A stretch of DNA of 64,000 nt from Edaphobacter acidisoli (lineage in GTDB: Bacteria > Acidobacteriota > Terriglobia > Terriglobales > Acidobacteriaceae), in contig NZ_BMJB01000001.1 of the NCBI RefSeq assembly GCF_014642855.1, positions 2,480,001 to 2,544,000 of the forward strand, written 5' to 3'. Shown here one piece after another: positions 51,604 to 52,598 of the stretch. The notes below the pieces were generated by a model. The model did no database searches and had not been told where the DNA came from. It saw nothing but the letters and a program-made list of their open reading frames with translations. The translations under genes were made by a program, and so were the position numbers. Positions within the stretch are counted from its first letter, which is position 1, and each line of letters starts with the position of its first letter.

Positions 51604-51690
51604 GCCGAAGTGGCGGAATTGGCAGACGCGCATGGTTCAGGTCCATGTATTCGCAAGGATGTGGGGGTTCGAGTCCCCCCTTCGGCACCA
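51604..51690 (+). tRNA. tRNA-Leu (anticodon CAG)
   Basis: GCCGAAG/CTTCGGC is the acceptor stem, with GCGG...-type D arm, anticodon arm CATGG-TTCAGGT-CCATG with CAG, a long variable arm typical of Leu tRNAs, T arm GGGGG-TTCGAGT-CCCCC, and encoded CCA. 87 nt. The 3' 22 nt are repeated at 52535-52556, marking an integration site. Confidence 0.96.
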
Positions 51691-51735
51691 GAGATTAGTT
51701 GTTTGCTGTGAATGGGATAGGAAGCAAATCGAAAA

Positions 51736-51759
51736 ATACGTGTGTGGGATACGTGTGTG
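51736..51759. repeat. Tandem ATACGTGTGTG repeats near the left end of the element
   Basis: ATACGTGTGTG occurs at 51736-51746 and 51749-51759 (13-bp period). Similar GCGTGTGTA and ATACGTGTGTT units lie at 52433-52452 near the right end. They may be arm-type recombinase sites. Confidence 0.5.
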
Positions 51760-51821
51760 AAGTCGGTTCTATCTCACGACATAAATTCAGTTACACGCTC
51801 TAAAAACTTGGGGCGGTTAGT

Positions 51822-52082
51822 TTATTCGACTTCTGTCCAATCTTCTGCGATCAAATCGACCATTGATGGCGACCATGTGCCTATCGTTCCGTCCGCACCA
51901 CACATGTCTATGTGCGGGCGATACTCTACCTCTGTACCTGCTGGGAAGAACTCGTTGAGCGGTTCGCGGCTCACCTCGAACTTGCTACCTGGCACCAAAA
52001 ATACATACCGGGCGTTCTTCCATTCGGTACGCCCAATGCGCTTGCCCGCCTTGATAGCGTCAAGGGCTTTTGAAAAATCCAT
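51822..52082 (-). CDS. DUF2829 protein, Tad2-like anti-Thoeris family
   Basis: Protein of 86 residues. MDFSKALDAIKAGKRIGRTE, WKNARYVFLVPGSKFEVSRE, GTEVEYRPHIDMCGADGTIG and PSMVDLIAEDW match the DUF2829 pattern over its full length, including the REP...FPAGTE...PHIDM block. In phages, this family includes Tad2, which blocks the Thoeris defence system by sequestering its cyclic ADP-ribose signal. Ligand-binding ability here cannot be proven from sequence. The gene lies within the tRNA-Leu-bounded element, as expected for phage cargo. No ribosome binding site is visible before the ATG at 52082. Confidence 0.82.
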   Translation of the reverse strand: MDFSKALDAIKAGKRIGRTEWKNARYVFLVPGSKFEVSREPLNEFFPAGTEVEYRPHIDMCGADGTIGTWSPSMVDLIAEDWTEVE

Positions 52083-52172
52083 TTAAATGTTGTGTAGTAC
52101 CCCAAGTTTTCAAAGGACGAACCTAACTTAATCAAAGCATATCCATGCGGTATTGCAAGTACACTTATCCCC

Positions 52173-52427
52173 ATGCACTGGCTGAAAGATAATGTGTACC
52201 TGGCGAGCTGGCTTGCAATTCCGGTCGCGTTGATCGGGATGGTTTATCAAAACCGAGGTAAGACGAGTGCCGAGGTAGATTGGAACCGTTCGCTTCTCTA
52301 TATCGCTTTTCTGGTCGCGCTCGCGGCGGCGTTCACGCCGATATTCGATACTTCAGCAAGAACGACCGCGGGTCTGCTCGTGTCCATGCTGATTCCATTT
52401 CTCATTATTGATCGCAAGCCACGCTGA
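52173..52427 (+). CDS. Small membrane protein in the tRNA-Leu element
   Basis: Protein of 84 residues with about three hydrophobic segments (LASWLAIPVALIGMVY, SLLYIAFLVALAAAF and TTAGLLVSMLIPFLII) separated by short charged loops, ending in DRKPR. No ribosome binding site precedes the ATG; the short AT-rich stretch TACACTTATCCCC upstream could mark a leaderless start. It is divergent from the Tad2-like gene with 90 bp between starts. Holin-like or membrane-sensor functions are possible, but no family is recognised. Confidence 0.55.
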   Translation: MHWLKDNVYLASWLAIPVALIGMVYQNRGKTSAEVDWNRSLLYIAFLVALAAAFTPIFDTSARTTAGLLVSMLIPFLIIDRKPR

Positions 52428-52534
52428 ATCCCGCGTGTGTAATACGTGTGTTAATACCGCGTAAGTGCCGTTTTTCGCGTTTCGTGCGGCTCGTGTTTTC
52501 TGTAACTTACGTGTTTTCAGTGAGCCTCGATAAA

Positions 52535-52556
52535 TCGAGTCCCCCCTTCGGCACCA
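52535..52556. repeat. Displaced 3' end of tRNA-Leu (att repeat)
   Basis: Exact 22-bp copy of the last 22 bases of the tRNA-Leu gene at 51669-51690, in the same orientation, with differing bases immediately on both sides. This is the distal attachment-site copy. Confidence 0.85.
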
Positions 52557-52571
52557 AGTGATTCCAATGAG

Positions 52572-52590
52572 ATGAGCACCCGTGTGGTGC

Positions 52591-52598
<8 letters not shown>
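52572..52598 (+). terminator. Rho-independent terminator, probably original to tRNA-Leu
   Basis: ATGAGCACC and GGTGCTCAT form a perfect 9-bp stem around CGTGT, followed by TTTTCTG. It lies 15 bp after the displaced tRNA 3' end, where the terminator of an uninterrupted tRNA-Leu gene would be. Confidence 0.85.

What the first reader, a model, noticed from the sequence alone, without database searches (positions are those of the whole stretch)
51604..52598. Mini integrative element bounded by tRNA-Leu and a displaced tRNA 3' end
A complete tRNA-Leu(CAG) is followed 866 bp later by an exact 22-bp copy of its own 3' end, and 15 bp after that by a strong terminator suited to a tRNA gene. Integration by a tyrosine recombinase at a tRNA 3' end explains all three features. 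The insert carries only two small genes and no integrase, so it is either a decayed prophage/island or a very small satellite moved in trans. Such short tRNA-borne cargo cassettes are rarely annotated.
Basis: partly seen in the sequence, partly recalled or inferred. Interest (0 to 1): 0.85.

Follow-up and report, generated by a model that had tools for sequence, protein, structure and literature searches.

The report
Tiny phage-site hitchhiker in tRNA-Leu
An 866-base piece of foreign DNA, carrying a likely anti-immunity gene and one other small gene but no enzyme to move itself, sits at the end of a tRNA gene, and it belongs to a previously unnamed family of such miniatures that carry the landing sites of Acidobacteriaceae phages and are probably moved by those phages' integrases.

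Summary
In detail: an 866-bp insert (51691-52556) lies between tRNA-Leu(CAG) and an exact 22-bp copy of its 3' end, and congeners have the empty site. It is not a one-off decayed prophage. It is one of at least 18 bounded mini-elements (705-1,674 bp) in 17 Acidobacteriaceae genomes and 9 genera, at tRNA-Leu, tRNA-Ser and ssrA; the home genome has a second one at ssrA. They share paired tandem "arm" repeats near both ends, a conserved ~118-bp right end and, in most, a conserved control region between two small divergent cargo genes. None has an intact integrase. The same right end and arm layout occur in full-size elements (40-62 kb; the 52-kb one is a clear tailed prophage) with one integrase family, and in the attP of the isolated acidobacterial phage Tunturi_4. 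The mini-elements are thus that family's attL plus attR with cargo in place of the phage; here a Tad2 (anti-Thoeris) homologue and a small membrane-like protein. Most likely they are moved in trans, or jointly with a neighbouring prophage; movement is not shown, and the home genome has no matching integrase. New variant of a known kind (CIME-like hitchers).

The parts
51604..51690 (+). tRNA-Leu(CAG), target gene, 3' end restored by the element
   Evidence: ARAGORN; orthologous empty loci in congeners
51669..51690 (+). attL core (T-loop to CCA)
   Evidence: exact 22-bp direct repeat
51736..51758 (+). left arm pair ATACGTGTGT-GGG-ATACGTGTGT (putative integrase arm-type sites)
   Evidence: same place and 11-13 bp period in other minis and in attL of integrase-bearing elements
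51803..51813 (+). AAAACTTGGGG, one arm of an inverted repeat that brackets ORF A
   Evidence: sequence; same bracket in prophage L058 and virus contig L067
51822..52082 (-). ORF A, 86 aa, Tad2-like (anti-Thoeris sponge family)
   Evidence: Pfam PF11195 E 2.1e-19; PDB 8v3e Tad2 E 1.6e-16 over residues 2-86
52098..52173 (.). conserved central region R1 between the divergent genes (probable promoter/regulatory region); contains CCCCAAGTTTT at 52100-52110
   Evidence: 79-84% identical in elements of three other genera; profile finds 23 of 398 family genomes
52173..52427 (+). ORF B, 84 aa, predicted membrane-like protein, no family
   Evidence: weak PADLOC PycTM hit E 0.027 not taken as a match
52434..52451 (+). 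right arm pair CGTGTGTAATACGTGTGT
52425..52538 (+). conserved right end R3 (P'-arm of the attachment site)
   Evidence: profile R3, window hit E 7.4e-23 (this element is among the 17 the profile was built from); R3-type ends in attR of full-size integrase elements and in attP of phage Tunturi_4
52535..52556 (+). attR core, displaced original tRNA 3' end
52569..52597 (+). displaced tRNA-Leu terminator
   Evidence: similar hairpin directly after tRNA-Leu in congener L007

Best explanation
It is a non-autonomous integrative mini-element made of the two halves of a phage attachment site (core and arm pair at attL; arm pair, conserved P' tract and core at attR) enclosing two divergently transcribed cargo genes around a conserved control region. 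SHOWN: insertion at the tRNA 3' end, empty sites in congeners, membership of a family of like elements, absence of an integrase, and the same att architecture as the tyrosine integrases with a MLxLYRRH N-terminus ('YRRH' here) of Acidobacteriaceae prophages. INFERRED: a YRRH-family integrase (with its directionality factor), supplied by a co-resident prophage or an incoming phage, recombines attL x attR to excise an 866-bp circle, or recombines the outermost att sites of a tandem array so that the mini-element leaves joined to a neighbouring prophage (accretion). Because it adds only 1-2% to a 40-60 kb phage genome it could be packaged with it. In a new host the same integrase inserts it at a tRNA or ssrA 3' end. 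The cargo here, Tad2, would by homology sequester the Thoeris signal and help an infecting phage past host immunity.
For: Empty site in congeners. Of 19 central-region profile hits, 12 are spanned by an exact repeat of 19-25 nt, which is a tRNA/tmRNA 3' end wherever that gene was read, against 14 of 1995 random positions. In all 18 bounded elements of 705-1,674 bp, including a second one in the home genome at ssrA (G000:C1 ~1118358-1119302, span 923 bp). Arms match left to right within minis in two flavours, CGTGTG.. and CGTGTAC../CGTAC... Full-size elements with a YRRH integrase, matching tRNA core and R3-type right end: G141 62.5 kb and G106 about 40 kb at tRNA-Ala, G220 52.1 kb at tRNA-Met with portal, terminase and tape-measure genes; in G106 the arms TGTACAAATTTTGTACAACCGA are identical at both ends. 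Isolated phage Tunturi_4: its integrase, a full-length relative at 26% identity, is preceded by arm pair, left tract, tRNA-like core, R3-like tract and the identical arm pair. Tandem arrays in ssrA: two minis (L163), and R3-ended units followed by a YRRH integrase start (L108, L169). Two minis in different genera share left 257 bp (87.5%) and right 131 bp (95.4%) with different ORF B.
Against: No excision, circle or transfer observed. The home genome has no YRRH integrase (best 23% identity, E 7e-4) and no other copy of its arm motif, so it may be stranded now. No integrase was found whose arms match ATACGTGTGT exactly. In G220 the left arms (CTGTTTACAAT) differ from the right ones. Some R3 right ends bound 3-18 kb stretches of ordinary cargo without a YRRH integrase, which this model does not fully explain. 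No free phage carrying a whole mini was found.
Confidence: 0.78

Rival explanations
1. Decayed prophage: internal deletion of a YRRH prophage left attL, attR and two passenger genes; it is dead DNA.
For: Same ends and the same ORF A bracket as prophages; G116 still holds an integrase fragment; no resident integrase here.
Against: Eighteen elements in 9 genera share the same plan: arms, divergent genes, right end, size and mostly the control region. Independent deletions would not converge on it. Open frames intact; shared ends with exchanged middle between genera.
Confidence: 0.16
2. Gene-cassette system with a dedicated trans-acting recombinase, like integron CALINs or pdif modules, rather than phage-linked.
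For: One or two genes per unit, tandem arrays, exchange of ORF B between shared ends.
Against: Ends match attP/attR of phage integrases, and no attC or dif was recognised; the integrase family is in a tailed prophage and an isolated phage.
Confidence: 0.05
3. tRNA-end duplication by rearrangement or assembly error, without site-specific recombination.
For: None beyond the repeat itself.
Against: Empty sites in congeners, displaced terminator, and homologues with the same ends at other tRNA genes.
Confidence: 0.01

Closest known systems
Cis-mobilizable elements (CIMEs), including integrase-less ssrA islands of Dehalococcoides (PMC3146451)
   Same: attL and attR retained, no integration genes, tandem accretion beside integrase-bearing elements, ssrA/tRNA target.
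   Different: The Dehalococcoides ones use a serine recombinase and belong to large islands; these are phage-att based, 0.7-1.7 kb, with a conserved control region and arm sites in many genera.
Phage satellites (PICI, P4-like, PICMI, tycheposons; listed in PMC11389934)
   Same: Integrated, linked to tailed phages, and (own knowledge) often tRNA-targeted with defence or counter-defence cargo.
   Different: To my knowledge those encode their own integrase and are several kb or more; these have no integrase, no known packaging signal and are far smaller.
MITEs
   Same: Short, ends recognised by a recombinase made by a relative elsewhere.
   Different: MITEs have inverted ends for a transposase and no protein genes (PMC11389934); these use attL/attR of a tyrosine integrase and carry genes.
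Tad2 anti-Thoeris proteins (PF11195; PDB 8v3e, 9eib)
   Same: ORF A aligns end to end.
   Different: To my knowledge reported in phages and prophages, not on an integrase-less mini-element of this size.

Membership tests
Integrative element at a tRNA 3' end (tyrosine-integrase type) | tRNA 3' end duplicated at the far boundary, empty site in relatives | tested here: met
Elements using the YRRH integrase attachment system | tandem arm pairs on both sides of the core plus R3-type right end | tested here: met
Elements using the YRRH integrase attachment system | recombination by that integrase | not testable with these tools
   needs experiment; no exact arm match to any integrase element found
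CIME (cis-mobilizable element) | attL and attR present, no recombination or transfer genes | tested here: met
   two small ORFs, no integrase in the insert
CIME (cis-mobilizable element) | tandem accretion beside an integrase-bearing element | tested here: inconclusive
   seen for relatives L108, L169, and two minis in L163; not at this locus
Phage satellite of the PICI, P4 or PICMI kind | own integrase | tested here: not met
   no integrase in the insert
Phage satellite of the PICI, P4 or PICMI kind | packaging of the element by a helper phage | not testable with these tools
   no packaging motif identified; the cassette shared with phages is only suggestive
Tad2 anti-Thoeris protein | full-length PF11195 domain | tested here: met
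Tad2 anti-Thoeris protein | binds the Thoeris signal | not testable with these tools
   binding residues and activity not examined

The most novel reading that the evidence does not exclude
These are the smallest phage hitchhikers known: attachment-site-only mini-elements that excise with, and are packaged inside, a neighbouring prophage's genome, repaying it with counter-defence genes such as Tad2; their sub-2-kb size is set by the packaging slack of the helper.
Probability: 0.33. Interest if true: 0.9.

Novelty: new variant of a known kind. Interest (0 to 1): 0.74.

Why it matters
If true, a widespread class of mobile DNA has gone unseen because it has no integrase and is shorter than what island finders look for. 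It links phage attachment sites to the exchange of single accessory genes, including counter-immunity genes, in common soil bacteria. Bounded minis in near-complete genomes and an isolated phage with the same attachment architecture make the question of movement directly testable.

Tried and rejected
A viral scan for the arm doublet gave 7 hits with none of the flanking anatomy: chance. Viral scans with the second half of the central region and with the ssrA core found no phage carrying a whole mini; the latter gave one contig, L293, with a YRRH-type integrase next to an ssrA core and arm-like tandem repeats on both sides. Three genome hits of the central-region pattern (L060, L062, L066) lack the family's anatomy and are chance matches. 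That an integrase already in the home genome serves the element was rejected as far as the YRRH family goes: none belongs to it. The idea of an inverted-repeat-bounded transposon was dropped: the inverted repeat brackets only ORF A, not the element. PADLOC hits for ORF B are too weak. A simple promoter scan of the region found nothing above shuffles. One paper lookup failed on a term-length rule and was not repeated.

Full report
OBSERVATION. ARAGORN places tRNA-Leu(CAG) at 51604-51690. Its last 22 bases recur exactly at 52535-52556, and a hairpin terminator follows at 52569-52597. In three congeners the orthologous locus (upstream response-regulator region 73-76% identical) carries the tRNA without the insert; in L007 the tRNA is followed directly by a hairpin like the one that here lies beyond the second copy. 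So an 866-bp insertion at a tRNA 3' end is well supported.

ANATOMY. The insert holds ATACGTGTGT twice, 13 bp apart, 45 bp after the tRNA, and CGTGTGTAATACGTGTGT 83 bp before the second core; these three ATACGTGTGT copies are the only exact ones in the 4.2-Mb genome, and the doublet is absent from 397 other family genomes at up to 2 mismatches. ORF A (51822-52082, -) is a full-length Tad2-like protein (Pfam 2.1e-19; PDB 8v3e 1.6e-16). ORF B (52173-52427, +) is a small membrane-like protein without a family. The two genes diverge from a 76-bp region that turned out to be conserved.

A FAMILY. That region matched other genera, and inspection showed the matches lie in similar short elements at tRNA-Ser and ssrA. 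A sequence profile of it (R1) hit 23 of 398 family genomes at E 0.01. Of 19 hits examined, 12 are spanned by an exact 19-25 nt repeat, which is a tRNA/tmRNA 3' end wherever that gene was read; 4 of the 7 others have under 400 bp of contig on one side. Random positions give 14 in 1995. With elements found through the right-end profile, and five read directly, the count of bounded elements is 18 (window 866, G000 ssrA 923, G114 733, G016 1339, G116 1674, G228 873, G186 1382, G377 1153, G217 862, G226 848, G204 890, G251 1242, G196 1127, G271 968, G386 824, G225 802, G097 1097, G199 705 bp between cores) in 17 genomes and 9 genera. R1 was not found outside the family in 386 genomes drawn from the phylum. 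Targets are tRNA-Leu, tRNA-Ser (TGA, GCT) and ssrA.

COMMON PLAN. Core; about 45 bp; arm pair (two flavours, CGTGTG.. and CGTGTAC/CGTAC.., period 11-13 bp, same flavour left and right in most); ORF A on minus, often bracketed by GAAAACTTGGGG/CCCCAAGTTTTC; R1; ORF B on plus; arm pair; about 80 bp conserved tract; core. A few members depart from this (G116 and G386 have other left ends; G116 keeps an integrase fragment). Cargo varies: Tad2 twice (window and G186), GIY-YIG-like and HNH nucleases, small membrane-like proteins, unknowns. ORF A of two minis matches ORF A of a prophage (L058) at the DNA level, and the bracket also occurs in virus contig L067, each not far from a tyrosine integrase. 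Minis in two genera share both ends (87.5% over 257 bp, 95.4% over 131 bp) but not ORF B: mosaic exchange.

THE ATTACHMENT SYSTEM. A right-end profile (R3) matches 132 of 398 family genomes at E 1e-3. Integrases of the L058 family (here 'YRRH', for MLxLYRRH) lie directly after tRNA-Leu, -Ser, -Ala, -Met, -Phe and ssrA, many with tandem arm-like repeats in the corresponding place. Three full-size elements have the integrase at the left and an R3-type end with the same core at the right: 62.5 kb (G141), about 40 kb (G106; arms identical at both ends) and 52.1 kb (G220; portal, terminase, tape-measure genes). The isolated acidobacterial phage Tunturi_4 has, upstream of its annotated integrase, arm pair TTGGGAAAGTTTTGGGAAAGTCCCC, an R3-like tract (profile E 0.0013, partial), a tRNA-like core, a left tract, and the same arm pair again. 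Thus the mini-elements look like the two halves of such an attP with cargo in place of a phage.

HOW IT LIKELY WORKS. Shown: insertion, family, like att architecture, lack of integrase. Inferred: mobilisation in trans by a YRRH integrase, or jointly with a neighbouring prophage through the outer att sites. Tandem arrays in ssrA (L163 two minis; L108 and L169, R3 end followed by a YRRH integrase start) fit the second route. The home genome now has no such integrase.

PRIOR ART. Integrase-less ssrA islands in Dehalococcoides were proposed to be cis-mobilizable elements (PMC3146451). A 2024 review of hitcher elements lists PICI, P4-like, PICMI, tycheposons, MITEs and CALIN (PMC11389934), none of this type. 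Searches for Tad2 with satellites and for acidobacterial islands found no description of this family in the held library; papers not held could contain one.

LIMITS. Elements in draft MAGs depend on assembly, though several are in near-complete or one-contig genomes (G000, G217, G271). R1 and R3 were built from family members, so their hits in those members are by construction; the tRNA-end repeats are the independent evidence. Some R3 ends bound longer stretches without a YRRH integrase. Function of ORF A is by homology only.

Noticed in passing
home genome G000:C1:1118358-1119302 (L110:3759-4702), outside the window: Second mini-element of the same family in the home genome, span 923 bp at ssrA, with CGTGTAC/CGTAC arms and different cargo.
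   Followed up: yes
L168 (G075:C2:38200-48400), L199/L156 (G335:C5), L164/L203 (G323:C37): R3-type right ends bounding 3-14 kb stretches at ssrA or tRNA-Leu with ordinary cargo (katG-like gene plus a Fur-like gene; a catabolic cluster; an RND efflux-like operon) and no YRRH integrase. Possibly integrase-less islands or old scars.
   Followed up: partly
L058:7340-7660 and L067:1658-1885: A small gene bracketed by inverted copies of CTTTGAAAACTTGGGG in phage genomes near the integrase, the same bracket as ORF A of the mini-elements; role unknown (regulatory site or cassette end).
   Followed up: partly
L067:1865-1955 and L058:7631-7720: Conserved tract at and beyond the right bracket of the ORF A cassette in two otherwise different acidobacterial phages (78% over 91 bp).
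   Followed up: no
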